A program made the position numbers and the translations under genes. Positions 1 through 12,581 of a DNA stretch of 13,324 nucleotides are shown one piece after another (position 1 is the first letter of the stretch; each line of letters starts with the position of its first letter). The DNA lies in the NCBI GenBank assembly GCA_026706505.1, contig JAPOYQ010000347.1, positions 1 through 13,324 on the forward strand, given 5' to 3'. Source of the DNA: Gemmatimonadota bacterium. Lineage in GTDB: Bacteria; Latescibacterota; UBA2968; UBA8231. The notes below the pieces were generated by a model, which ran no database searches, was not told where the DNA came from, and was given only the letters and a program-made list of their open reading frames with translations.

Positions 1-834
1 GTGCGAGAGGGTGCCGCGGCTACCGCGCTGGTGGACGGCCAGTGGAATTTCGGCCAGATTGGGGCCCAGCGGGTCACGGAGCTGGCGATTGAGCGCGCTC
101 AGCGGTTGGGCGTGGGCAGTGCCAGCCTGCGCCGCTGCCGTCACGTGGGGCGATTGGGAGCGTATGCAGAACAGGCCGCGCAGGCCGGGTGCGTGGCCTT
201 GGTCACCTGCAGCACGTCAGGCGAAGGGCATTGGGTAGCGCCGTTTGGCGGGCGCGAAGGACGGCTGGGCACCAACCCCATCGCGTTTGCGGCCCCCACC
301 TCGAACCAGCCCGTAGTAATGGATTTCTCAACCGCGGCCCTGCCCGAAGGACGCGTGCGCCTATACCGGGACACCGGGCAAGCGCTGCCCGAAGACACCT
401 TAGTAGATCGGAGCGGAGCGCCTTCCACCGACCCAGCTGACCTGTACGAGGCTGGGGCGATCCTGCCTTTTGGCGGGGATCAAGGATACAAGGGCTTCGG
501 CTTGGGCCTCATGGCCCAGATTTTTAGCTGCCTGCTGGGCGAGCCAACTTGGCTCGAAGAGGGACTGGAATCCAATGCCAATACGATGTGGCTGTTGGCG
601 GTGGATGCGGCGGCTTGGGGCAATGTCGAGCGCTTCCGCGCCGAATTGGACCGCATGATCACCTATGTGCACTCGTCTGCGCCGGCGCGTGGCAGCAATG
701 GGGTGCTGGTGCCGGGCGAACGCGAATTTGTCGCAGAGGCGTGCTACCGGCGCGAGGGCATCCCGGTGGAAGAAGGGGTTTGGAGCCAGCTAGTGCAGGT
801 CGCCCAAGAAGCTGGCTTGGAGATAGAGACGTGA
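1..834 (+). CDS. Ldh/MDH2-family (YiaK-type) NAD(P)-dependent oxidoreductase, 5'-partial
   Basis: The 277 visible residues match the malate/L-lactate dehydrogenase 2 family (ureidoglycolate, sulfolactate and 2,3-diketogulonate dehydrogenase relatives). These are cytoplasmic enzymes that interconvert 2-hydroxy and 2-oxo acids with NAD(P)H. Visible landmarks are a VDG start of the core (residues 11-13), RHVGRLGAY (47-55) with the likely catalytic His48, the nucleotide-binding stretch APFGG...RLGTNP (80-93), DFSTAA (108-113), STDP (142-145), GYKGFGLGL (162-170) and a late PGE (238-240). Family members are usually 330-350 residues, and the first visible residues align well inside the family, so about 70 N-terminal residues lie left of the window. 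The GTG at position 1 is therefore probably internal. The stop overlaps the GTG start of the next gene, which suggests translational coupling. The substrate cannot be read from the sequence. Family assignment is secure. Confidence 0.88.
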   Translation: MREGAAATALVDGQWNFGQIGAQRVTELAIERAQRLGVGSASLRRCRHVGRLGAYAEQAAQAGCVALVTCSTSGEGHWVAPFGGREGRLGTNPIAFAAPTSNQPVVMDFSTAALPEGRVRLYRDTGQALPEDTLVDRSGAPSTDPADLYEAGAILPFGGDQGYKGFGLGLMAQIFSCLLGEPTWLEEGLESNANTMWLLAVDAAAWGNVERFRAELDRMITYVHSSAPARGSNGVLVPGEREFVAEACYRREGIPVEEGVWSQLVQVAQEAGLEIET

Positions 835-1586
835 ACGAAGAATTGCAAGCCGCAGCCGAGCATCTAGACGCGTATGGGTACTGCGTGCTGAGTGACCGCA
901 TACCTCGCGAGGCCGCGTTGGCGTTGGGCCGCCGCTGTCTAGCGCTGCACAGCGACCCGCGCTGCCAGGACTATATCGTGGGCGACGAGTACTATCAGAC
1001 TTTGTTCGGCATGCTCAACCAAGACGACGAGGTCTGGAACTGCGCCTTCCACCCGGATACCGTAGCCCTTGCGCGGCACTTTTTGGGGCCGCGCTGCCGC
1101 GTCGTCGAAGCCTGCTCCAAGCCGACTTGGCCCGGGGCCCCCGCCCAGCATTTACACGCTGATTCTGCGGGCTCGTTTGCCCAAGTGCCCGATGTGCCGT
1201 GGATGATCAACAGCATCTGGATGCTGACGGATTTTACCGAGGCCAATGGGGCCACCGGCGTCGTGCCCATGAGCCACCGGTCGAGGCGGCCCGCTCCGCC
1301 ACCCGATATGGGTGCTGATAACCCGTTGATCAAGCCCGTGGAAGGCCGCGCTGGTTCCGTGATGCTGTGGCACGGGGGGCTTTTTCACCAAGCCCGGGCC
1401 AATCAGAGCGAGGAGGTAAGGATAGGGCTGAATATCGCGTATTACCCTCCTTGGTTTAACAATTGGATTGAAGGCGGCCACCAGCCTCTGTGGCCAGAGA
1501 CGTACGAGCGCATGCCCGAGGACTTCCGCAGCCTGTGCCCAAAGCTATTGGGTCGCCGCCGCGCCGACCGCTATGAGCAGCGGTGA
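831..1586 (+). CDS. Phytanoyl-CoA dioxygenase (PhyH) family Fe(II)/2-oxoglutarate oxygenase
   Basis: This 251-residue protein has the size and motif order of the PhyH family, whose members hydroxylate small molecules using Fe(II), O2 and 2-oxoglutarate, normally in the cytoplasm. The HxD iron ligands are His109 and Asp111 in HLHAD. The distal iron His is His186 in WHGGLFHQA, and Arg197 (SEEVRIG) is the expected 2-oxoglutarate carboxylate ligand. The motif ATGVVPMSH (141-149) is the usual GxxxxxPGSH-like turn. I chose the GTG at 831 because the sequence from there (NEELQAAAEHLDAYGYCVL) is the typical PhyH N-terminal helix with the 'yGYcvl' strand. The reading frame is open further upstream to 549, but that part lies wholly inside the preceding gene. 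The ATGA-like GTGA overlap indicates an operon with the Ldh-type gene. Substrate is unknown; PhyH paralogues are abundant and diverse in Poribacteria-like genomes. Confidence 0.88.
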   Translation: MNEELQAAAEHLDAYGYCVLSDRIPREAALALGRRCLALHSDPRCQDYIVGDEYYQTLFGMLNQDDEVWNCAFHPDTVALARHFLGPRCRVVEACSKPTWPGAPAQHLHADSAGSFAQVPDVPWMINSIWMLTDFTEANGATGVVPMSHRSRRPAPPPDMGADNPLIKPVEGRAGSVMLWHGGLFHQARANQSEEVRIGLNIAYYPPWFNNWIEGGHQPLWPETYERMPEDFRSLCPKLLGRRRADRYEQR

Positions 1587-1638: not shown

Positions 1639-2379
1639 ATGAAAACAGTGGTCTTCGGTGCCGCCGGTTGGCTCGGCCGCGCCGTCTTGCAAAACTTGGC
1701 TGGCAAACACGACATTCGCGCCTTTGAGTACGGCCCCCAAGCTTGGGAGGCGTATCGCGACATAGACGGCGATTGGAACGGCGGCGAAGTGGTCCACGGC
1801 GATATAGCCGATTATCACGCGGTGGAGAGAGCCATCAGCGGCGTGGATTGCGTCATTCACACCGCGGTTTACTTCGTCGGCGACCCCAACGACGACAAGC
1901 CCTTCCTCATCAACCTCAAGGGTCTGTGGAATGTCCTGCAAGCGTCCCAAGAGCAGGGCGTCCGCAAAGTAGTACACATCGGCTCGTGCCAGACCGTGCA
2001 TCCCGAGGGAATTTTCTTCTCCTCAGAGGTGCGGCGGCCCGACGGCAGCCTGTATGCGGTGTGCAAGCGACTGCAGGAGGAAATGTGCCGCCAGATCCAC
2101 GAAGCCTTTGGGCTGCCCATCGTAGTCTTGCGGCCCGACTACATCGTGGATTCGCGCTTGGGGATCGGCAAGTATCGGGAACCATTGAACGTCCGCAACG
2201 GCTTGGTCTGCCGCCACGATTTGGCCGAAGCCTGCCGATTAGCCTTAGAAAAAGACGAGGTGAAGTTCGACGTATTGCACGTGGTCGGCACGCCCGAAGC
2301 CGACGCCACCTGCAATACGGCGCGAGGCCGAGAAGTGCTGGGTTTGGAGTACAATGGGAATTTGGACCAGTACCGCTGA
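1639..2379 (+). CDS. NAD(P)-dependent epimerase/dehydratase-type SDR, uronate-dehydrogenase-like
   Basis: This is a 246-residue extended-type short-chain dehydrogenase/reductase. It opens with a Rossmann dinucleotide motif, VVFGAAGWLG (residues 4-13, GxxGxxG). An acidic strand end and GDIAD (54-58) follow, and then CVIHTAV (71-77), the family's 'D-I-H-A' region. The catalytic triad is Ser116 (HIGSCQTV), Tyr139 and Lys143 (YAVCK), followed by VLRPDYIV (163-170). The length and the 'GSLYAVCK' context resemble bacterial uronate dehydrogenases (about 265 residues) more than full UDP-sugar epimerases (310-330 residues). The C-terminal substrate domain is short. The ATG at 1639 has an AGAAAGGA-type Shine-Dalgarno site about 8 nt upstream. 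It follows the PhyH gene by 52 nt in the same direction, so co-transcription is likely. The substrate is inferred only loosely as a sugar or sugar acid. Confidence 0.85.
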   Translation: MKTVVFGAAGWLGRAVLQNLAGKHDIRAFEYGPQAWEAYRDIDGDWNGGEVVHGDIADYHAVERAISGVDCVIHTAVYFVGDPNDDKPFLINLKGLWNVLQASQEQGVRKVVHIGSCQTVHPEGIFFSSEVRRPDGSLYAVCKRLQEEMCRQIHEAFGLPIVVLRPDYIVDSRLGIGKYREPLNVRNGLVCRHDLAEACRLALEKDEVKFDVLHVVGTPEADATCNTARGREVLGLEYNGNLDQYR

Positions 2380-2475: not shown

Positions 2476-5382
2476 GTGAGACAGACCGATTGCGTCGTTC
2501 GTTTATTTTTTCTTTTACTGATCTATTCGGCCAGTCCAGCCCAGTCAGGGGACTGGCGCTACTACGGCGGCGACGCGGGCAGCACTAAGTACTCGCCGCT
2601 CGCTCAGATCGACCGCGACAACTTTGCCGACCTGCGCATCGTCTGGCGCTGGCGGCCCCCCGAGGCGGAAATTCTCGCAGAGCACGATGTTAGTAGAAAC
2701 TACTACCGCAGTACGCCGATAGTAGTAAATGGCGTACTCTACGTCAGCTCGCCCTTTGGAATCGTAGCGGCCCTCGATGCGGCCACTGGCGAGGAGTTGT
2801 GGAACTTCGATCCCGAATCGTGGCGAGACCAAGAGTGGTTCCCCAGCACCCACCGGGGCGTGGCCTATTGGGAAGAGGACGGGGCCAAGCGCGTGCTCTT
2901 CGGCACGACCGACGGCTATCTCTACTCGCTCGACGCCGAAACCGGCCAACCCGACCCAGCCTTTGGCGATAGCGGCCGCGTCGATCTGACCCAAGGCATG
3001 CGTCGGGAGGTGCGGCGCGGTGACTACGTTTCGGTCTCGCCACCGATGATCTACGGCAGCTTGGCCATCGTCGGCTCGTCCGTCCCCGACATTCGCGGTC
3101 GGCCCGTGCCCCGGCGCATGCCGCCGGGCGATGTGCGCGCCTTTGATGTGCGCACGGGCGAGCAAAAGTGGATCTTCGAGACTATTCCGCAAGAGGGTTC
3201 CTTCGGCAATGAGACTTGGGGCGCAGAGTCGTGGAAGGACTTCGGGGGCACCAATGTGTGGTCGATGATGAGCCTCGACCCGGCGTTGGGCTATGTCTAT
3301 CTGCCGGTTAGCACGCCGAGCAATGACTTTTACGGCGGCGAGCGCCCCGGCGACAACCTCTTCGGCGACAGCATCGTCTGCCTCGACGCCCGGACTGGTG
3401 GTCGGGTCTGGCACTTCCAGATAGCCCATCACGGAGTTTGGGACTACGATCCGCCCGCCGCGCCGATTCTCGTCGATATCGAGGTTGACGGCAAGCCGAT
3501 CAAAGCCGTGGTCCAGCTAACCAAACAGGCCTTCTGCTTTGTCTTCGACCGGGTCACGGGCGCGCCCGTGTGGCCGATCATCGAAATGCCGGTGCCCGCC
3601 TCGACCATTGTCGGCGAAGAGGTCTCTGAAACCCAGCCGATCCCCGTCTGGCCTCGGCCCTACGACCGCCAAGGCTTAAGTGTGGACGACCTGATCGACT
3701 TCACGCCCGAGTTGCGGCAAATGGCGATGGAGGCGATTGAAGGGCATAGGTACGGCTCCCTGTATGTGCCGCCCGCAGAGAAGGGAACGATTCTCGTGCC
3801 GGGCCTTTTGGGAGGTTCGGATTGGTCGGGCGGTGCCGTGAATCCGGCGACGGGCGTCCTCTACGTGCCTTCCAAGACCATGCCCTATCTAGTAACGCTG
3901 CGCCCGACCGACGCTTCACCTCGCCCCGGAGAGACCAGCGAGGCTACTTCGGCCTATACTGGCGTCTTCAACCACAACTTCACCGCCGCGAAGAACCTGC
4001 CGCTGCTCAAGCCGCCCTACGGCCGCCTCACCGCCATTGACCTCAACAGGGGCCGGCATCTGTGGATGCGGCCGATGGGTCGCGGTCCGATTGACCATCC
4101 CCTACTGCGCGATCTCGAAATCAAAGAAGACTTGGGCTGGCCCTCGCGGACCTTTCCTCTATTAACCCCGACGCTTCTGCTGACTGCGACCGAAGACCCA
4201 CGCGATGGCCAGTTCGGCCCGGCGGCCGGACAAGGATACTTCGTCGATCGCGAGGCGTATTTGCGGGCCTTTGACCCAGCGACGGGCGAATTAGTAGGCC
4301 AAGTCGAATTGCCGGGCAATGCGTATGCCAGCCCGGCTGTTTACCAAGCGGCTGGCCGCCAATACGTGGTCTTGTCGCTGGGCGACTCCTACCGGCCGAG
4401 CGAGCTAGTGGCTTTGGCCATTCCGCGCCCGGGCGAGGCCATGCCCGAGCAGGGCAAGAGTCGCAAAGACGCCGATCACAGGGCGTTCTACGAGGCCGTA
4501 GCAGCACTCGACGCGGGCGATAGCCAGCAGCTAAGCAAGCTCCTCAAAAAGCACGCAGGGTTAGTGAGGGCGCGCGGCTTTCTGGACGAGTGGTACGAGT
4601 TTCCCAACTTGCGCGGCGCTACGCTCTTGCACCTGACAGCCGGCGCACCGCTGCGCACGGCCTTGCCCGATAATGCCGTGAGCTTGGCCGAGGTCCTACT
4701 CGACGCGGGTGCCGATCCCAATGCAGCGACGCTCGATTCGGCGACCACGGCAGAACTTGCGGCTACCGCTATTCAACTCGAGTGGGCCGGGATCAAGGGC
4801 GACCTGCTCGCGCTGCTATACGAGAAGGGAGCCGACCCGAACCGCAACAACGGCAAGCTGCTGCACGATCTGCTGATCAGCCGCGAAAGAAAGCTGGCCG
4901 AGATGCTCCTCAGCGCCGGGGCCGAGGTAGATTTGCGCTTTGCCGCTGGACTCAATCGCACCGATTTGATGGCTAGCTTTTTCAAAGACGGTGTCCCGAC
5001 GCCAGAGGCCAATCGCCTCTACCGCGCCAACCCCGACACCGTCCTCACTGGCCAGCAGGTCGTCGATGAGGCACTGCACTACGCAGTGTACAGCGGCGGT
5101 CGGGAGGCCATTGACTTCCTGTTAGAGCGCGGTGCGAATATCGACGCTTTAGTCGGCTTTTTCTGGGAGTGGGATTGGGGTAGCACAGCCCTGCACAAGG
5201 CCGTGGATACCGAAGATGTGGCATTGATTCGCTATTTGCTGGAAAAGGGCCCAGACACGACCATTGGCGATGCGCGCTGGGACGAGACCGCCTATGACTG
5301 GGCAGGCTACTACGAAAACGACGCCATGCGCAAAACCATCGGCGCACATGACGCGGCGGCCAAGGAAACCGAAAAACAGTAG
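2476..5382 (+). CDS. Secreted PQQ-dependent dehydrogenase fused to C-terminal ankyrin repeats (copy A)
   Basis: 968 residues. Residues 1-24 form a Sec signal peptide (Arg9, hydrophobic LFFLLLIYSA, small residues before GDW), which places the enzyme in the periplasm. Residues 26-650 are a Gcd-like quinoprotein propeller. Landmarks are YYGGDAGSTKYSPLAQI (29-45), GVAYW (128-132), GNETW (244-248), YGGERPGDNLF (286-296), HHGVWDYDPP (318-327) with the catalytic Asp region, QLTKQAFCFVFDR (347-359) with the PQQ-contacting Lys350, and a closing GRQYVV. Such enzymes oxidise sugars or alcohols using pyrroloquinoline quinone and Ca2+. Residues about 665-955 are ankyrin-like repeats with LLDAGADPNA, LLYEKGADPN, LLSAGAEVD, LLERGANID and LLEKGPD helix-turn ends. 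No CxxCH haem site or membrane helix is seen after the signal. The start is the GTG at 2476 with GAGAGGAG just upstream. It is the most divergent propeller of the three copies. Confidence 0.9.
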   Translation: MRQTDCVVRLFFLLLIYSASPAQSGDWRYYGGDAGSTKYSPLAQIDRDNFADLRIVWRWRPPEAEILAEHDVSRNYYRSTPIVVNGVLYVSSPFGIVAALDAATGEELWNFDPESWRDQEWFPSTHRGVAYWEEDGAKRVLFGTTDGYLYSLDAETGQPDPAFGDSGRVDLTQGMRREVRRGDYVSVSPPMIYGSLAIVGSSVPDIRGRPVPRRMPPGDVRAFDVRTGEQKWIFETIPQEGSFGNETWGAESWKDFGGTNVWSMMSLDPALGYVYLPVSTPSNDFYGGERPGDNLFGDSIVCLDARTGGRVWHFQIAHHGVWDYDPPAAPILVDIEVDGKPIKAVVQLTKQAFCFVFDRVTGAPVWPIIEMPVPASTIVGEEVSETQPIPVWPRPYDRQGLSVDDLIDFTPELRQMAMEAIEGHRYGSLYVPPAEKGTILVPGLLGGSDWSGGAVNPATGVLYVPSKTMPYLVTLRPTDASPRPGETSEATSAYTGVFNHNFTAAKNLPLLKPPYGRLTAIDLNRGRHLWMRPMGRGPIDHPLLRDLEIKEDLGWPSRTFPLLTPTLLLTATEDPRDGQFGPAAGQGYFVDREAYLRAFDPATGELVGQVELPGNAYASPAVYQAAGRQYVVLSLGDSYRPSELVALAIPRPGEAMPEQGKSRKDADHRAFYEAVAALDAGDSQQLSKLLKKHAGLVRARGFLDEWYEFPNLRGATLLHLTAGAPLRTALPDNAVSLAEVLLDAGADPNAATLDSATTAELAATAIQLEWAGIKGDLLALLYEKGADPNRNNGKLLHDLLISRERKLAEMLLSAGAEVDLRFAAGLNRTDLMASFFKDGVPTPEANRLYRANPDTVLTGQQVVDEALHYAVYSGGREAIDFLLERGANIDALVGFFWEWDWGSTALHKAVDTEDVALIRYLLEKGPDTTIGDARWDETAYDWAGYYENDAMRKTIGAHDAAAKETEKQ

Positions 5383-5389
5383 AGGAGGA
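5383..5389 (+). promoter_or_regulatory. Strong Shine-Dalgarno site fixing the start of copy B
   Basis: AGGAGGA directly follows the TAG stop of copy A and lies 3 nt before the ATG at 5393. It decides the start of copy B: the same frame is open for 43 codons further upstream, but only inside copy A and without a signal peptide. The tight 10-nt spacing between stop and start implies translational coupling of A and B. Confidence 0.7.
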
Positions 5390-5392
5390 AGA

Positions 5393-8305
5393 ATGAACAG
5401 ACGAGCCTGTGGGGTCTTGCTGGCATCGTTGTCGCTCTCGCTCGCGGCGTTTGCCAGCGATGTCGATTGGCCGCACTACGCCGCCGACCAAAGCGGCACC
5501 CGCTACACCCCGGCGGACCAGATCAATCGCGACAATTTCGATCAGTTGCGCGTGATCTGGCGCTACCGCCCCCCCGATCAGCAAATCTACGAGACGGCTG
5601 GCCCCAACCCGACGGGGCGCCGCCTTAGTTTCGACAACAACCGAGGCACGCCACTCGCCGTCAACGGTGTGATCTACTATGGCTCGCCCTTCAACGTTCT
5701 CGTGGCTCTCGACGGCCAAAGCGGCGAGGAACTGTGGACCTTTGACCCAGAGGCTTGGCGGATGAATTACCGCTTCTTGGGCAACTTGTGCGGAGTGAGC
5801 TATTGGACCGATGGCGAGGTTGAACGGGTATTTATGGCCACTTCGACTTCCCATTTGTACTCCATCGACGCCAAGACCGGCCTGCCCGACCCCAATTTTG
5901 GCGAGGACGGGCGCGTCGATTTGGGGGCCTCGCTGCGTAGGCCGCTGGGCGAAGAGGATCGCTGGAACTACGGAGTCACCTCCCAGCCTGTAGTCTGCCG
6001 CGACGTGGTCGCCGTTGGCTCGGCCATGGGTGATTGGCGCTTCAGGCCGCCGCCCGAATACACCCCTCCCGGCGATGTGCAGGCCTTCGACGCGCGCACC
6101 GGCGAGAAAGTGTGGGAGTTCCACACGATCCCGTTAGAGGGCGAATACGGCAACGAGACGTGGGAAAGCGATGCGTGGAAAAAGTACGGCGCAGCCAATG
6201 TGTGGGCGACGATGACGGCCGACGAGGAGTTGGGCAACTTCTATCTGCCGGTGAGTACGGCCAGCCACGACTACTACGGCGGCGAGCGCCCCGGCGATAA
6301 CCTGTTCAGCGAGTCGGTCGTCTGCCTGAAAGCTGAGACCGGCGAGCGAGTTTGGCACTACCAACTAGTCCACCACGGCCTGTGGGACTACGATCCGCCG
6401 GTTGCTCCTCTGCTGTTGGACGTGGACGTTGATGGCCAACCGCGCAAGATCGTCGCTCAGCTAACCAAACAGGCTTTCTGCTTTGTCTTTGACCGCATAA
6501 CCGGCGAGCCGATCTGGCCGATTGTCGAAAAGCCAGTGCCCCAATCGCAAGTGCCAAGCGAAAAGACCTCGCCGACGCAGCCTTTTCCGACCAAGCCTGC
6601 ACCCTTTGAGCGCCAGGGTATCAGCGAGGACGACCTGATCGACTTTACGCCTGAGTTGCGCGAGGAAGCCAAGGCCATTCTCGCCCGGTACGACTACGGT
6701 CCGCTCTACACGCCGCCGACGGAGAAGGGCGTTTTGTCGGTTCCTGGTCAATGGGGCGGGGCCGACTGGGCTGGGGGCGCGGCGGATCCACACACGGGCG
6801 TACTCTACGTGCCGTCGCACATGGCCATCACCACCGTGCAGTTGCATCGGGTAGATGACCCGGAGGCGTACTCGGAATTTTCTGCTAGCAACAACATGCA
6901 CGTCGTCGGCCCGCGTGGTCTGCCGCTGGTCAAGCCGCCGTACGGCAGTATCACGGCGATTGACCTGAATAGCGGCGAGCATATATGGCGGACGACGGTG
7001 GGTAAGGGGCCGGTCAATCACCCGGCGCTCAAGGGCCTTGACTTGCCGGATATGGGTTGGGACAACCGAACCTTTGTCTTGGCCACGCCGAACCTTCTGT
7101 TGGCTACTTCGCAGGACCCACACGACCTCGCCGACGCCGGCAGGGACTACTTCGTCGACCGCGATGCCTATCTGCGGGCGTACGAGTTGGCGTCGGGCGA
7201 GGAGATCGGCCGCGTCGAATTGCCCAGCAATGCCTATGGCGCGCCGATGAGCTATACGGTCGGCGGTCGTCAGTACGTCATCGTGCCGGTAGGCAATGAC
7301 CACGTCGAGCCAGAGCGTCCGCCCGAGTTGGTGGCGCTGGCCATTCCGCACGAGAGTGAGGAACTGCCGCCCCAAGGCCGCGAGCGCGGCGACGCCGATC
7401 ACGAGGCTTTTTACCAAGCGGTACAGGCCATCGACGCCGGTGATAGCGAGATGCTGCGAAAGCTGCTCTCTGATTATCCCAAGCTAACGGCGGCGCGTGG
7501 CTATTTCGACGAGTACTACGAATACTCTTACTTTCGCGGGGCCACGCTCTTGCACCACGTGACGGGCGAGCCGCAACGAGTGCCGCTGCCCGAAAACGCC
7601 GTGGAGTTGGCCACTATCTTACTCGCCGCGGGTGCTGATCCCAACGCCGCGACGCTCGATTCGGTGACGACAGCGGAGTTGGCGGTCGCCGCTGACCAGC
7701 TCGAATGGGCCGAGATCAAGGGCGACCTGCTCTCGCTGCTCTACGAGCAGGGTGCGGACCCAGACCGCAACAACGGCAAGGTGCTGCACGACCTGCTGAC
7801 CAGCCGCCAAATGGAACTGGCCAAGGTGCTCCTCGCCTCGGGGGCCTCGGTTGACCTGCGCTTTGCCGCTGCGCTCAATCGCACCGATCTGATGGCGGGC
7901 TTTTTCAAAGACGGCGCACCCACGCCCGAGGCCAATCGCCTCTACCGCGCCAACCCCGACACCATCCTCACCGACCAGCAGGTCGTGGACGAGGCGCTGC
8001 ACTACGCGGTGTACAACAGCGGCCGAGAGGCCATCGACTTCCTACTGGAGAAAGGTGCCAATATCGACGCTTTAGTCGGCGGCTTCTGGCAGTGGGATTG
8101 GGGCAGCACGGCCCTGCACAAGGCCGTGGATACCGAAGACGTCGAACTGATTCGCTACTTGCTAGAAAAGGGCGCAGACACGACAATTGGAGACGCCCGC
8201 TGGAGTGAAACGCCCTACGACTGGGCTGGTTACTACGAAAACGACGCCATGCGCGAAGTCCTCAAAGCGGCATCAAACCCAGAAGAGGAAAAATCCAGTG
8301 AATAA
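5393..8305 (+). CDS. Secreted PQQ-dependent dehydrogenase fused to C-terminal ankyrin repeats (copy B)
   Basis: 970 residues. The signal peptide spans about residues 1-21 (Arg-rich start, leucine/serine-rich core, AFA before SDVDW), so the protein should be periplasmic. The propeller (about 25-650) carries YYGGERPGDNLF (294-305), HHGLWDYDPP (327-336), QLTKQAFCFVFDR (356-368; Lys359 is the expected PQQ contact), FERQGISEDDLIDFTPEL (405-422) and GRQYVIVPVGN. The ankyrin-like part (about 668-955) has repeat ends at LLAAGADPNA, LLYEQGADPD, LLASGASVD, LLEKGANID and LLEKGADTT. The expected role is PQQ-dependent oxidation of a sugar or alcohol. As in copy A there is no cytochrome domain. The propeller is closest to copy C, but from about residue 755 the protein is much closer to copy A (about 32 differences over roughly 200 residues, counted by eye). 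The last 8 nt overlap the start of copy C. Confidence 0.9.
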   Translation: MNRRACGVLLASLSLSLAAFASDVDWPHYAADQSGTRYTPADQINRDNFDQLRVIWRYRPPDQQIYETAGPNPTGRRLSFDNNRGTPLAVNGVIYYGSPFNVLVALDGQSGEELWTFDPEAWRMNYRFLGNLCGVSYWTDGEVERVFMATSTSHLYSIDAKTGLPDPNFGEDGRVDLGASLRRPLGEEDRWNYGVTSQPVVCRDVVAVGSAMGDWRFRPPPEYTPPGDVQAFDARTGEKVWEFHTIPLEGEYGNETWESDAWKKYGAANVWATMTADEELGNFYLPVSTASHDYYGGERPGDNLFSESVVCLKAETGERVWHYQLVHHGLWDYDPPVAPLLLDVDVDGQPRKIVAQLTKQAFCFVFDRITGEPIWPIVEKPVPQSQVPSEKTSPTQPFPTKPAPFERQGISEDDLIDFTPELREEAKAILARYDYGPLYTPPTEKGVLSVPGQWGGADWAGGAADPHTGVLYVPSHMAITTVQLHRVDDPEAYSEFSASNNMHVVGPRGLPLVKPPYGSITAIDLNSGEHIWRTTVGKGPVNHPALKGLDLPDMGWDNRTFVLATPNLLLATSQDPHDLADAGRDYFVDRDAYLRAYELASGEEIGRVELPSNAYGAPMSYTVGGRQYVIVPVGNDHVEPERPPELVALAIPHESEELPPQGRERGDADHEAFYQAVQAIDAGDSEMLRKLLSDYPKLTAARGYFDEYYEYSYFRGATLLHHVTGEPQRVPLPENAVELATILLAAGADPNAATLDSVTTAELAVAADQLEWAEIKGDLLSLLYEQGADPDRNNGKVLHDLLTSRQMELAKVLLASGASVDLRFAAALNRTDLMAGFFKDGAPTPEANRLYRANPDTILTDQQVVDEALHYAVYNSGREAIDFLLEKGANIDALVGGFWQWDWGSTALHKAVDTEDVELIRYLLEKGADTTIGDARWSETPYDWAGYYENDAMREVLKAASNPEEEKSSE

Positions 8306-11300
8306 ACGCGCCTATCGAGCCTTGTCAGTTTTGCTGTCGCTCGCGACGGCGGCGTTTGCCGATGAGGTCGATTGGCCGTACTACGCCGCCGATCAAGGTG
8401 GCACCCGCTACACCCCTGCCGACCAGATAAATCGCGACAACTTCGATCAGCTACGCGTGGTTTGGCGCTATCGGCCCCGCGATCAGCAGATCTACGAGAC
8501 GGCGAGAGCTAATCGAAGCCGGGACCGGGATCGGGGTCGGGGTGATCGGCGGCGCGGGGGTTTTCGCCTTGGCTTCAGCAACAATCGCGGCACGCCGCTG
8601 GCCGTCAATGGCGTGCTCTTCTACGGCTCGCCATACAACATCCTCTCGGCTATTGACGGCCAAAGCGGCGAGGAACTGTGGGCGTTCGACCCAGAATCTT
8701 GGAAGGCCAGTTCCACTTTCGCGGGCAATTCGCGCGGGGTGAGCTATTGGACCGATGGCGAGGTCGCGCGGGTTTTTTTGGCGACTTCGACCGCCTATCT
8801 GTATTCCATAGACGCCAAGACCGGCCTGCCCGACCCCAATTTTGGCGAGGATGGCCGCGTCGATTTGGGAGCCTTGCTGCGCCGGCCGCTGAGTGAAGAG
8901 GAGCGCAGGGACTACGGAGTTACGGCTCCGCCCGTGATCTGTCGCGATGTGGTCGCAGTTGGCTCGGCGATCATGGATGCGCGCTTCAGGCCGCCGCCCG
9001 AATACATGCCCCCGGGCGATGTGCAGGCCTTCAATGTGCGCACCGGCGAGAAAGTCTGGGAATTCCATACCATTCCGCAGGAAGGCGAATACGGCAACGA
9101 GACCTGGGAAAACGATGCGTGGAAGACCTTCGGCGCGGCCAATGTCTGGGCGACGATGACGGCCGACGAGGAGTTGGGCAACTTCTACCTGCCGGTGAGC
9201 ACGGCCAGCCACGACTACTACGGCGGCGAGCGCCCAGGCGACAACCTGTTCAGCGAGTCAGTAGTGTGTCTAAAGGCCGAGACCGGCGAGCGGGTATGGC
9301 ACTACCAACTCGTCCATCACGGCTTGTGGGACTACGACCCACCGGCTGTTCCCCTGCTGTTGGACGTGGTCGTCGATGGCCAACCGCGCAAGATCGTCGC
9401 TCAGCTAACCAAACAGGCCTTTTGCTTTGTCTTTGACCGCGTAACCGGAGAGCCGATCTGGCCGATTGAGGAAAAGCTGGTGCCACAGTCGCAGGTAGCG
9501 TGGGAAAAAACCTCGCCAACGCAGCCTTTTCCGACCAAACCAGCGGCCTTTGAGCGCCAGGGTATCAGCGAGGATGACCTGATTGATTTCACGCCTGAGT
9601 TGCGCGAGGAAGCCAAGGCCATTCTCGCCGAATACGACTACGGTCCGCTCTACACGCCGCCGACGGAGAAGGGGGTCTTGTTAGTTCCGGGCCAAGCCGG
9701 CGGAGCTGACTGGGCGGGCGGTGCGGCGGACCCGCGCACGGGCGTGCTGTACGTGCCGTCGCACATGGCCATTACCAATGTGGAGCTGCGGCCGGTACGC
9801 GACCTAGATGCCTATTCGGCGTTTTCTGCCCGCGCCGGTCGGCACATCCGCGGCCCTCGGGGTCTGCCACTGGTCAAGCCCCCGTACGGCAGCATCACGG
9901 CGATTGACCTCAACAGTGGCGAGCATCTGTGGCGGACCGCAGTGGGCCAAGGGCCGGTCGATCACCCGGCGCTCAAGGGCCTCGACCTACCGGATATGGG
10001 CTGGGACAACCGCACCTTCGTCTTGGCCACGCCGAACCTCCTGTTGGCTACTTCCGAGGACCCGCACGGCCTGGCCGACGCTGGCAGGGACTACTTCGTC
10101 GATCGCGACGCGTGCCTGCGGGCGTACGATTTGGCGTCGGGCGAGGAGATCGGCCGCGTCGAGATGCCCAGCAATGCCTACGGTGCGCCGATGAGCTATA
10201 TGGCCGGTGGCCGCCAATACGTGGTCGTGCCGTTGGGCAACCGTCTAGGCCGGTCCGGGCGTCCGCCTGAATTGGTCGCCTTGGCCATTCCGCACGAAGG
10301 CGAGAAACTGCCGCCCCAGGGTCGCGACCGCAGCGACGCCGACCACAAAGCCTTTTATAAGGCTGTAGAGGCCATGGACGCCGGCGACAGGGAGACGCTA
10401 CAGAAGCTGCTCACTGAGTACCCTGAGCTAGCGATGGCGCGCGGCTATTTCGACGAGTACTACGAATACCCCTACTTCCGCGGGGCCACGCTCTTGCACC
10501 ACCTCGCCGGCGAGCCGCAACGAGTACCGCTGCCCGAAAACGCGGTTGAACTAGCCGCGACCCTGCTCTCAGCAGGTGCCGACCCGAACGCCGCCACGTA
10601 CGACTCGATCTCTGTGCTGGATCTGTTCATAGAAAGCGATCCGCTCGAATGGGCCGAGAGCAAGCCCGAAATGATCCAACTTCTAGTGACCAACGGCGTG
10701 GATGTGAACCGCAACCGGGGGCAAATTTTATGGGACGCGCTTAGGGAGAGGGACTTAGATCTGGCGCGCATGTTGGTCGCCGAGGGGGCGACCGTGGATT
10801 TGCGCTTTGCTGCTGGCGTCAACCGCGTCGATCTGATGGCCGAGTTTTTCGACTCCGAAGGCCAGCTAAAAGAGGGAATCGGCCATCTGTACCATCCCGA
10901 CCCGGATACCGTGCTTACCGCCGAGCAGATTATGGTGGAAGCACTCAATTTTGCGGCCTATAGTGGCGCATTAGAAGCAGCGGAGTTTTTGCTGGATCGC
11001 GGTGTGGATGTCAACGGGATTGCCAGTGGGTTTACCCGTTACGATCGAGGTAGTGCGCCCTTGCACAAAACCGTCATGGCCGACCAGCTAGAGATGGCAC
11101 GCCTGCTCTTGGCACGGGGCGCGGATCCACTAGTGAGGGCGCGGCGCTTTCGCATCACGCCTTATGAATTGTCCAACTACTTGGATACCTCCGAGGCTCT
11201 CGACGAGCTACTCAGAGAGTACACTGAGGCCGCCGCAGGGCAGGCGGACGCAGACTCCAGCACCGCTCCTCCGCGAAGGCGCCGGGGGAACCGCGAGGGA

Positions 11301-11309
11301 TCGCGATAA
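8298..11309 (+). CDS. Secreted PQQ-dependent dehydrogenase fused to divergent C-terminal ankyrin repeats (copy C)
   Basis: 1003 residues. The GTG at 8298 overlaps the end of copy B (8 nt) and has GAGGA 8 nt upstream. It yields a clear signal peptide, residues 1-21, ending AFA before DEVDW. The propeller (about 25-662) contains YGGERPGDNLF (308-318), HHGLWDYDPP (340-349), QLTKQAFCFVFDR (369-381; Lys372) and GRQYVVVPLGN. Compared with copy B it has an extra Arg/Gly/Asp-rich stretch at about residues 69-91, encoded by short GC-rich repeats. The first ankyrin-like repeats (about 680-765) match copy B. From about residue 767 the sequence departs strongly from A and B, although it keeps repeat ends such as LLVTNGVDVN, LVAEGATVD, LLDRGVDVN and LLARGADP. 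A basic tail (PPRRRRGNREGSR, 991-1003) is absent from A and B. The role is PQQ-dependent periplasmic oxidation, substrate unknown. Confidence 0.9.
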   Translation: MNKRAYRALSVLLSLATAAFADEVDWPYYAADQGGTRYTPADQINRDNFDQLRVVWRYRPRDQQIYETARANRSRDRDRGRGDRRRGGFRLGFSNNRGTPLAVNGVLFYGSPYNILSAIDGQSGEELWAFDPESWKASSTFAGNSRGVSYWTDGEVARVFLATSTAYLYSIDAKTGLPDPNFGEDGRVDLGALLRRPLSEEERRDYGVTAPPVICRDVVAVGSAIMDARFRPPPEYMPPGDVQAFNVRTGEKVWEFHTIPQEGEYGNETWENDAWKTFGAANVWATMTADEELGNFYLPVSTASHDYYGGERPGDNLFSESVVCLKAETGERVWHYQLVHHGLWDYDPPAVPLLLDVVVDGQPRKIVAQLTKQAFCFVFDRVTGEPIWPIEEKLVPQSQVAWEKTSPTQPFPTKPAAFERQGISEDDLIDFTPELREEAKAILAEYDYGPLYTPPTEKGVLLVPGQAGGADWAGGAADPRTGVLYVPSHMAITNVELRPVRDLDAYSAFSARAGRHIRGPRGLPLVKPPYGSITAIDLNSGEHLWRTAVGQGPVDHPALKGLDLPDMGWDNRTFVLATPNLLLATSEDPHGLADAGRDYFVDRDACLRAYDLASGEEIGRVEMPSNAYGAPMSYMAGGRQYVVVPLGNRLGRSGRPPELVALAIPHEGEKLPPQGRDRSDADHKAFYKAVEAMDAGDRETLQKLLTEYPELAMARGYFDEYYEYPYFRGATLLHHLAGEPQRVPLPENAVELAATLLSAGADPNAATYDSISVLDLFIESDPLEWAESKPEMIQLLVTNGVDVNRNRGQILWDALRERDLDLARMLVAEGATVDLRFAAGVNRVDLMAEFFDSEGQLKEGIGHLYHPDPDTVLTAEQIMVEALNFAAYSGALEAAEFLLDRGVDVNGIASGFTRYDRGSAPLHKTVMADQLEMARLLLARGADPLVRARRFRITPYELSNYLDTSEALDELLREYTEAAAGQADADSSTAPPRRRRGNREGSR
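8521..8544 (+). repeat. Imperfect GC-rich hexamer repeat inside copy C
   Basis: Four consecutive 6-nt units (GGGACC, GGGATC, GGGGTC, GGGGTG) fall within the segment coding for RSRDRDRGRGD. The matching place in copy B is a shorter, non-repetitive linker (GPNPTGRRL). The pattern fits expansion by replication slippage in units of two codons, which keeps the frame. Confidence 0.65.
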
Positions 11310-11372
11310 AAACGCATAGAAGCATCGCACGGCCCGTTGTGGACATTCTCTACCGCTAAAAGAGGGAGCATC

Positions 11373-12581
11373 ATGGGCCAAAAGACAGAACTGTTCGACA
11401 AAAGGCTGTGCGAGTTATTCGGCACGGCCGCCCGCAGCGAGGGCCCGCTGGCCGCCAGCGGTGCCGGGCGGCGCTTCACGGGTATCGATCTGTGCCGCCC
11501 GCTCAATCCCGAGCAGGTCGCCTTTCTGCTGGACGCCCTGAGCCAGTTTCGCATCGTCAGCATTGCCGGGCAGGACTTGGAAGCCTTTTCCCTAGCCCAC
11601 TTTGAGCGCTTCGCCAACCACTGGGGCGCGCCGGTGCCGCACCCTAGCAACTTCATGCGCGGGGGTAAGCCGGCCCAGCAAGATGGCGACAGCGACGGCC
11701 CCTTTGAGTTGATTCCCTTCGCGCGTCGTACGGCCGCTGCGGTCAACGCGGCCTTCCCCGGCCAACTGCAATGTCTGCCGCACGAGTCGCCTGCGGTACT
11801 GGTAGTGTCCAACTTTCGGGGCGCGCGCAGTGCTGAACCCGTCAAGGTGACGCAGGGCGGCTCGTGGCACACGGACATTGAGTACGAGCCTTTGCCGATC
11901 TACGTCTCGATGTTCCTCGCCCACAAGTCGCCGGTAGCGCGCGATACCCCGGGCGGGAATTGGGTGCAGGCATCCGGCGACGGCAAGGCTCATCCGTACT
12001 ACGAAGGCTCGGATCGCGAACTCATGCGGCTGCGCAAGCGGCTGCCGTTGAACGGCGAGACGGCCTTTGCCGACACTGCGGGGGCCTTTGCGGCACTGCC
12101 GCCAACAGAGCAGGCAGCTTTGGAGCAAGTTCAGCTACGGCGGCGGTTGAACGAGGGAGACGAAGGCTGGCTGGCTCCGCTGGTGCGGACCAACCCGCGC
12201 TCTGGCATCAAGTCTCTGCACAGTCCAATATGGGCGTCGCGGCCACGGGTGCGGCCGGCGATCGAGGTGGAAGGGATGTCCGCGGAAGCATCGCGCGCGT
12301 TCCTCGACCGGCTCGAAGCGCACGTGCTGCAGCCGCAGTTCCGCTACGACCACCCGCATGCGCCGGGCGATGTGACGCTGTGGGACAACTGCATGACCCT
12401 GCACAACTCGCCGCCACTCAAGTCGAATATCAACTCGCTCGACGATGCTCGGCTGCTGTATCGCCTGAGTTGCAAGGGCGAGCCTGCCCTGTCGCTGCCG
12501 CGACGCGATCCGCCGGAGTGGCGCGCTGCTCACATCCCCGGTGGATACGCCACGCCTCCGGAGATTATAGACATCGCGTAA
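11373..12581 (+). CDS. TauD/TfdA-like Fe(II)/2-oxoglutarate dioxygenase with insertions
   Basis: 402 residues, against about 280-300 for TauD. Iron ligands are His166 and Asp168 in SWHTDIEYEPLP and His344 in WDNCMTLHNSPP. Arg360 (DDARLLYR) sits where TauD Arg266 binds 2-oxoglutarate, and Arg364 corresponds to the substrate-contacting Arg270. LVRTNPRSGIKSLH (270-283) and APGDVTLWDN (330-339) are further family signatures. Family members hydroxylate small acids, sulfonates or amino-acid-like molecules in the cytoplasm. Extra segments lie before the HxD (about 95-160) and between TPGG and NGETAFADT (about 195-227), plus a C-terminal tail. The ATG at 11373 has AGAGGGAG 4 nt upstream; a TTG 12 codons earlier lacks this. 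It follows copy C by 63 nt in the same direction and may be co-transcribed. Substrate unknown. Confidence 0.87.
   Translation: MGQKTELFDKRLCELFGTAARSEGPLAASGAGRRFTGIDLCRPLNPEQVAFLLDALSQFRIVSIAGQDLEAFSLAHFERFANHWGAPVPHPSNFMRGGKPAQQDGDSDGPFELIPFARRTAAAVNAAFPGQLQCLPHESPAVLVVSNFRGARSAEPVKVTQGGSWHTDIEYEPLPIYVSMFLAHKSPVARDTPGGNWVQASGDGKAHPYYEGSDRELMRLRKRLPLNGETAFADTAGAFAALPPTEQAALEQVQLRRRLNEGDEGWLAPLVRTNPRSGIKSLHSPIWASRPRVRPAIEVEGMSAEASRAFLDRLEAHVLQPQFRYDHPHAPGDVTLWDNCMTLHNSPPLKSNINSLDDARLLYRLSCKGEPALSLPRRDPPEWRAAHIPGGYATPPEIIDIA

What the first reader, a model, noticed from the sequence alone, without database searches (positions are those of the whole stretch)
2476..11309. Triplicated PQQ-dehydrogenase/ankyrin-repeat fusion
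Each of three adjacent genes joins a complete Gcd-like quinoprotein propeller to about 300 residues of ankyrin-like repeats. PQQ dehydrogenases are commonly stand-alone, fused to cytochrome c, or anchored by N-terminal membrane helices; I do not recall an ankyrin tail as a standard form. The fusion is in-frame and collinear in all three copies, so it is not an assembly or frameshift artefact. Because the proteins carry signal peptides, the repeats should sit in the periplasm. There they could dock a partner, hold an electron acceptor or assemble the paralogues into a complex.
Basis: partly seen in the sequence, partly recalled or inferred. Interest (0 to 1): 0.8.

Follow-up and report, generated by a model that had tools for sequence, protein, structure and literature searches.

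The report
Quinoprotein dehydrogenases with ankyrin tails
Three neighbouring genes each encode what looks like an exported sugar- or alcohol-oxidising enzyme of a known type with an unusual ankyrin tail, a protein-binding scaffold that seems to be kept, lost and even exchanged between sister genes in a group of uncultured bacteria.

Summary
Genes at 2476-5382, 5393-8305 and 8298-11309 each encode a signal-like N-terminus, a complete PF01011 propeller and about 310 residues of ankyrin-type repeats. It is no artefact: 13 of 64 genomes of the phylum carry the fusion. Nor is it a fresh triplication: copy 1 shares only 54-56% with copies 2 and 3 in the propeller, and related loci hold two or three copies. 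New here: the last ~200 residues of copy 2 are of copy-1 type; tails are under purifying selection; the fused state is not one clade; two relatives add a gluconolactonase domain. PqqC was found in 0 of 64 genomes, a PqqU-type PQQ importer in 14 of 16, once divergent from a PQQ-ankyrin gene. Most likely these are periplasmic Gcd-like dehydrogenases using scavenged PQQ, the tail docking a partner, perhaps a c-type cytochrome; but haem-motif genes lie near only 3 of 18 tailed loci, the window not among them. The enzyme part is well supported; the partner is inference.

The parts
2476..5382 (+). gene 1: exported PQQ propeller + ankyrin tail (968 aa); Gcd-type residues Asp323, Lys350, Trp262, Asp205
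   Evidence: four orthologues 91-95% identical in the propeller
5393..8305 (+). gene 2: exported PQQ propeller + ankyrin tail (970 aa); Asp332, Lys359, Trp271, Asp214; start 10 bases after the stop of gene 1
8298..11309 (+). gene 3: exported PQQ propeller + ankyrin tail (1003 aa); start codon overlaps the end of gene 2; Asp345, Lys372, Trp284, Asp227
7358..8302 (+). ankyrin-type tail of gene 2 (residues 656-970), folded alone
7643..8302 (+). part of gene 2 that is of gene-1 type (from about residue 751)
831..1586 (+). PhyH-family oxygenase, conserved neighbour (GTG 831 overlaps the stop of the Ldh_2 gene; start chosen by me)
1639..2379 (+). NAD-dependent epimerase-type protein, conserved neighbour
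11373..12581 (+). TauD-family oxygenase, conserved neighbour (ATG 11373 chosen by me; the longest ORF starts at 11337)

Best explanation
Each gene makes a soluble, exported (periplasmic) quinoprotein dehydrogenase of the Gcd-like PF01011 class, with an ankyrin-type solenoid fused behind the last propeller blade. The enzyme binds PQQ that the cell imports through a PqqU-type outer-membrane transporter rather than makes, and oxidises a sugar, polyol or alcohol in the periplasm. The tail is a protein-docking arm that brings the enzyme to a partner: an electron acceptor such as a TPR-bearing c-type cytochrome, or a downstream enzyme such as a lactonase. Because the tail is a separable module, paralogues can lose or exchange it, which would change the partner without changing the catalytic head. 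Shown by calculation: domains, predicted fold, signal-like N-terminus, retained key residues, selection on the tail, tail of foreign type in gene 2, PqqU without PqqC in relatives. Inferred: substrate class, PQQ loading, docking, identity of the partner.
Against: CXXCH-bearing ORFs occur near only 3 of the 18 distinct tailed loci examined (L061, L062, L065); 0 of 7 ORFs examined in the window and none in the six related loci L055-L060 have one, so no cytochrome partner was found here. Most Pfam cytochrome matches of those neighbours lie below their cut-offs. Untailed proteins nest among tailed ones, so the tail is dispensable for some members. The most conserved tail motif (DLRxAAG) also occurs in an ECF-sigma-ankyrin protein and a stand-alone ankyrin protein, so it need not mark a partner site. 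Gcd N355, N607 and H262 are not kept; 8 of 68 tailed proteins and both lactonase-fused ones have Asn for the catalytic Asp, so some members may not be dehydrogenases. In G013 only a tail ORF is left beside PqqU. G006 and G019 showed no PqqU at 1e-30. R304 of PqqU also aligns with Arg in an unrelated receptor, so it counts little.
Confidence: 0.5

Rival explanations
1. The tail is a host-interaction element: the protein or its tail reaches the cell surface or a sponge host and interferes with host phagocytes, as proposed for other ankyrin proteins of sponge symbionts; the propeller is the carrier.
For: Passages of PMC8163846 report ankyrin proteins enriched in sponge-associated MAGs and many repeat proteins in sponge-associated Latescibacterota; PMC7081726 reports ankyrin enrichment in PAUC34f and Poribacteria relative to Latescibacteria. 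PMC8163846 cites work in which repeat proteins helped evade phagocytosis (Nguyen et al. 2014, seen only as a citation). That close relatives of the window are sponge MAGs is recalled from isolate names, not shown by a call.
Against: The propeller keeps its key residues under strong selection. PqqU lies beside one such gene. A similar ankyrin module sits on an ECF sigma factor. Only a Sec-like N-terminus was seen.
Confidence: 0.13
2. The tail is an intramolecular part: it stabilises the propeller or shields the active site, and binds no partner.
For: High pTM and unbroken confidence across the junction; similar selection on both parts.
Against: Relatives of 635-682 aa do without it, and gene 2 carries a tail end of another type, which is easier to understand for a separable module.
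Confidence: 0.22
3. The propellers are non-catalytic binding proteins ('empty' quinoproteins) and the whole is a scaffold or sensor.
For: 8 of 68 tailed and 3 of 51 untailed homologues have Asn for the catalytic Asp; a curated 'empty' quinoprotein group exists (TIGR04528); no PqqC in 64 genomes.
Against: All three window proteins keep Asp, Lys and Trp; they score far below the TIGR04528 cut-off (218-223 against 650 bits); PqqU is present in 14 of 16 genomes.
Confidence: 0.1

Closest known systems
Membrane-bound quinoprotein glucose dehydrogenase (Gcd; TIGR03074)
   Same: Best curated subfamily by score (372-408 bits); equivalents of Asp466, Lys493, Trp404 and Asp354 kept
   Different: Below the subfamily cut-off (832.65 bits); one signal-like N-terminal helix instead of a membrane domain; C-terminal ankyrin domain
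Type II quinohaemoprotein alcohol dehydrogenases (1yiq, 1kv9, 1kb0)
   Different: There the extra domain is a cytochrome c that takes the electrons (recalled); here it is an ankyrin-type solenoid, and no CXXCH occurs in the window's ORFs that were examined
ECF sigma factor-ankyrin and stand-alone ankyrin proteins (L038, L039, P0062)
   Same: Similar ankyrin module, 31-39% identical over about 260 residues; DLRxAAG motif in L038 and L039
   Different: No propeller in L038 and L039; L038 carries sigma-70 region 4 and is expected in the cytoplasm
AnkB of Pseudomonas aeruginosa (recalled: a periplasmic ankyrin protein that supports catalase KatB)
   Same: Ankyrin repeats outside the cytoplasm, serving a redox enzyme
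   Different: A separate protein, not fused to its enzyme; recalled, seen here only through a search listing
PqqU-based PQQ scavenging (PMC12124388)
   Same: Latescibacterota with PqqU and without PQQ synthesis genes are reported there (n = 14; section 11 read), in line
   Different: The main text does not mention ankyrin (0 occurrences)

Membership tests
PQQ propeller family PF01011 | score above Pfam's gathering cut-off over the full profile | tested here: met
   3 of 3 proteins, 596-650 bits against 26.7, profile 1-595
PQQ-dependent dehydrogenase (function) | catalytic Asp and Lys and stacking Trp of Gcd (D466, K493, W404) kept | tested here: met
   3 of 3 window proteins; residue roles recalled
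PQQ-dependent dehydrogenase (function) | metal-site residues of Gcd (D354, N355) kept | tested here: inconclusive
   D354 kept in 3 of 3, N355 in 0 of 3; residue roles recalled
PQQ-dependent dehydrogenase (function) | binds PQQ and oxidises a substrate | not testable with these tools
   needs protein
Membrane-bound Gcd subfamily TIGR03074 | score above the NCBIfam cut-off | tested here: not met
   372-408 bits against 832.65
Membrane-bound Gcd subfamily TIGR03074 | N-terminal multi-helix membrane domain | tested here: not met
   one N-terminal helix (residues 3-21) before the propeller in the gene 2 model
Methanol/ethanol dehydrogenases TIGR03075 | score above the cut-off | tested here: not met
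   210-230 bits against 480.05
Acido-empty quinoprotein group A TIGR04528 | score above the cut-off | tested here: not met
   218-223 bits against 650
Ankyrin repeat proteins | Ank models above their cut-offs | tested here: met
   Ank, Ank_2, Ank_3, Ank_4 and Ank_5 above cut-off in 3 of 3
Ankyrin repeat proteins | ankyrin solenoid fold in the predicted model | tested here: met
Dot/Icm ankyrin effectors (AnkX, AnkY, AnkH, AnkC models) | score above the NCBIfam cut-off | tested here: not met
   at most 37 bits against 450-1400; only the generic repeat matches

The most novel reading that the evidence does not exclude
A combinatorial periplasmic dehydrogenase system: bacteria that import PQQ keep several quinoprotein heads whose ankyrin tails are interchangeable address labels. 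By recombination between paralogues a head gets another tail and so another electron acceptor or partner enzyme; in related lineages the same frame gains a lactonase to pass the product on.
Probability: 0.25. Interest if true: 0.72.

Novelty: new variant of a known kind. Interest (0 to 1): 0.5.

Why it matters
Surveys of symbiont genomes count ankyrin repeats as 'eukaryote-like' host-interaction proteins (passages). Here some ankyrin repeats are tails of exported redox enzymes, so such counts can mix two things. If the tail docks an electron acceptor, this is a new way to wire PQQ dehydrogenases into the respiratory chain, besides fused haem domains and membrane anchors. The tail exchange gives a natural test: heads of nearly one kind with two kinds of tail. 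In relatives the combination of PqqU, no PqqC found and several quinoproteins makes PQQ exchange in such communities directly testable.

Tried and rejected
Recent triplication: rejected, since the propellers of gene 1 and genes 2 and 3 share only 54-56%, and relatives hold orthologues of each in the same order. Artefact or decaying appendage: rejected by dN/dS and by the many tailed homologues. One clade of tailed proteins: rejected for the propeller tree (AU p 2.6e-47, quick tree under LG+G4; 29 tailed against 19 untailed rows, a subset of the 71 and 51; 12 shorter tailed proteins were left out of both). Whether losses or re-gains explain it stays open. The tail tree puts 31 PQQ tails on one side of the branch from 5 other ankyrin proteins, with weak support (76).

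A PQQ transporter next to the G019 gene: the TonB receptor there (L067 3277-5367) is 23% identical to PqqU and lacks the Y99 and R365 equivalents, though R304 aligns; rejected. Haem protein beside the window genes: none among 7 ORFs (the Ldh_2 frame was not among them). Position of the tail relative to the active site: not settled, since no coordinates or pairwise error values are given. Complex prediction: not possible with the tool. Papers: search listings; passages of PMC12993501, PMC7081726 and PMC8163846; abstract, passages and section 11 of PMC12124388. Nothing seen there describes the fusion. The genome-contig scan used one short peptide pattern, so its 9 loci are a lower bound. The protein searches list 120 of 822 and 120 of 7996 hits and scored only 7998 candidates each. 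The phylum search covers 64 genomes, so presence in other phyla is not excluded.

Changed on checking: confidence lowered from 0.55 to 0.5, because CXXCH neighbours were recounted as 3 of 18 tailed loci; the shares of two rivals were raised slightly.
Full report
What is there. On the plus strand a partial Ldh_2 gene (1-834) is followed by a tight run of six genes: PhyH (start 831 overlapping the Ldh_2 stop), an epimerase-type protein (1639-2379), genes 1-3, and a TauD-type oxygenase (ATG 11373). On the minus strand lies a 238-aa ORF without Pfam match. Gene 2 starts 10 bases behind gene 1, and gene 3's start overlaps the end of gene 2, which fits one transcript; a consensus scan found no promoter or terminator in 2300-2500.

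Active site and export. Against E. coli Gcd, D466, K493, W404 and D354 are kept in 3 of 3 window proteins; N355, N607 and H262 are not. Among homologues D466 is kept in 60 of 68 full-length tailed and 48 of 51 untailed proteins; the rest have Asn. Residue roles are recalled knowledge of Gcd. D468 is also present in Gcd, so it does not mark lanthanide use. A strongly hydrophobic N-terminus (a crude hydropathy test; no signal-peptide predictor was available) is present in the three proteins and in 65 of 68 full-length tailed homologues, 5 of them with a lipobox-like motif; 3 lack it.

How common. The tail search lists 120 of 822 hits and the propeller search 120 of 7996; together they gave 191 proteins, of which 131 have the propeller, 80 with tail and 51 without. 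Because one search was made with the tail itself, 80 of 131 is no estimate of frequency. Nine named loci come from eight MAGs labelled Gemmatimonadota, Gemmatimonadetes, Latescibacterota or Latescibacteria and one labelled Gemmatimonas phototrophica. In that phylum 13 of 64 genomes have the fusion, all in this family; in one of them (G019) only about half a propeller is in frame. Ten further genomes have weaker tail hits that I did not count as fusions; of these I looked at two, an ECF sigma-ankyrin protein and a stand-alone ankyrin protein. In G005, G008 and G018, 2 of 5, 3 of 4 and 3 of 3 PF01011 proteins found at E <= 1e-30 are tailed (read).

History. Relatives hold PhyH - epimerase - PQQ-ankyrin (2 or 3) - TauD in the same order. 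Gene 1 is missing in G005, G009 and G011 and present in G001, G002, G003 and G008 (G001 and G003 are cut by contig ends). In G009 a piece of 86 residues, 88% identical to the end of the window's gene 2 tail, remains there. Gene 2 of the window has a propeller 91-92% identical to seven of seven gene-2 orthologues, but from about residue 771 to the end it is 79-80% identical to five of five gene-1 proteins and 40-48% to 17 of 17 gene-2, gene-3 and single-copy proteins; the DNA profile places the change at about residues 751-780. The equal distance to all gene-1 proteins says that the donor was gene-1-like but not the present neighbour. P0001, P0002 and P0003 share this tail, 94-99.6%. Tails evolve under purifying selection (dN/dS 0.105-0.216 in 11 pairs, against 0.059-0.143 for propellers; Nei-Gojobori). 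The tailed state needs at least 4 changes on both propeller trees.

Context that points to function. PqqC (TIGR02111) was found in 0 of 64 genomes of the phylum; its built-in controls did not ring, but the same search finds it in pSymB at 5e-129. A homologue of E. coli PqqU (28-33% identical) is present in 14 of 16 genomes searched, with Phe at Y99, and K274, R304 and R365 in 13 of 13 full-length copies; the 14th is a fragment that lacks the R365 region, and R304 also aligns in an unrelated receptor. This agrees with the published report of PqqU without PQQ synthesis genes in 14 Latescibacterota (PMC12124388 section 11). In G018 a PQQ-ankyrin gene is divergent from PqqU and is followed on its strand by a membrane protein with 5 CXXCH motifs and TPR repeats and by an ASPIC/UnbV protein. 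In G013 the same place keeps PqqU and the CXXCH protein, but only a 277-aa tail ORF. In G006 a protein with one CXXCH and TPR repeats lies about 2 kb downstream. Two CXXCH ORFs without Pfam match lie near the lactonase-fused gene of G018. Pfam cytochrome matches of these neighbours are weak, most below cut-off. In all, 3 of 18 distinct tailed loci have a CXXCH ORF in the stretch fetched, against 0 of 2 untailed loci and 0 of 5 other PqqU loci; this is too few to prove a link. G013 and G018 also have 1252-aa PQQ-ankyrin-gluconolactonase proteins (SGL E 7e-45 in G013; 87% identical in G018), but with Asn for the catalytic Asp. The window and the six related loci L055-L060 have no CXXCH ORF among those examined.

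Reading. The enzyme part, export and PQQ import in relatives are well supported by sequence. That the tail docks a partner follows from what ankyrin solenoids usually do, from selection on it, from its separability and exchange, and from the neighbours in G018 and G006; it is not shown. I put the combined reading at 0.5.

Novelty. Full-text searches for the combination returned nothing that I saw to describe it; automatic annotation calls some members quinoprotein glucose dehydrogenase. It is a new domain arrangement of a known enzyme class rather than a new kind of enzyme.

Noticed in passing
L062 5304-9062 and L063 3710-7468: PQQ propeller-ankyrin-SMP-30/gluconolactonase in one 1252-aa frame, in two genomes, with Asn in place of the catalytic Asp.
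   Followed up: partly
L061 7423-12541; L089 7936-10876: A PqqU-type PQQ importer is divergent from a PQQ-ankyrin gene in G018; in G013 the same place keeps only a tail ORF.
   Followed up: partly
L061 4426-7374; L089 4799-7732: Membrane protein with 5 CXXCH haem motifs and TPR repeats, 978-983 aa, near PqqU and the PQQ-ankyrin gene; possible electron acceptor.
   Followed up: partly
L038 991-2916: ECF sigma factor region 4 fused to an ankyrin module similar to the quinoprotein tails.
   Followed up: partly
L057 13586-17758: In G005 a 1390-aa ORF of unknown kind stands between the epimerase and gene 2, where gene 1 lies in relatives.
   Followed up: no
P0139, P0146, P0152, P0167, P0169, P0176, P0177, P0178: Tailed quinoproteins with Asn for the catalytic Asp: possible non-dehydrogenase branch.
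   Followed up: no
L055 557-1975 and 4487-6085: Two sulfatase genes upstream of the PhyH gene in G002; in the window a Ldh_2 gene stands next to PhyH instead.
   Followed up: no
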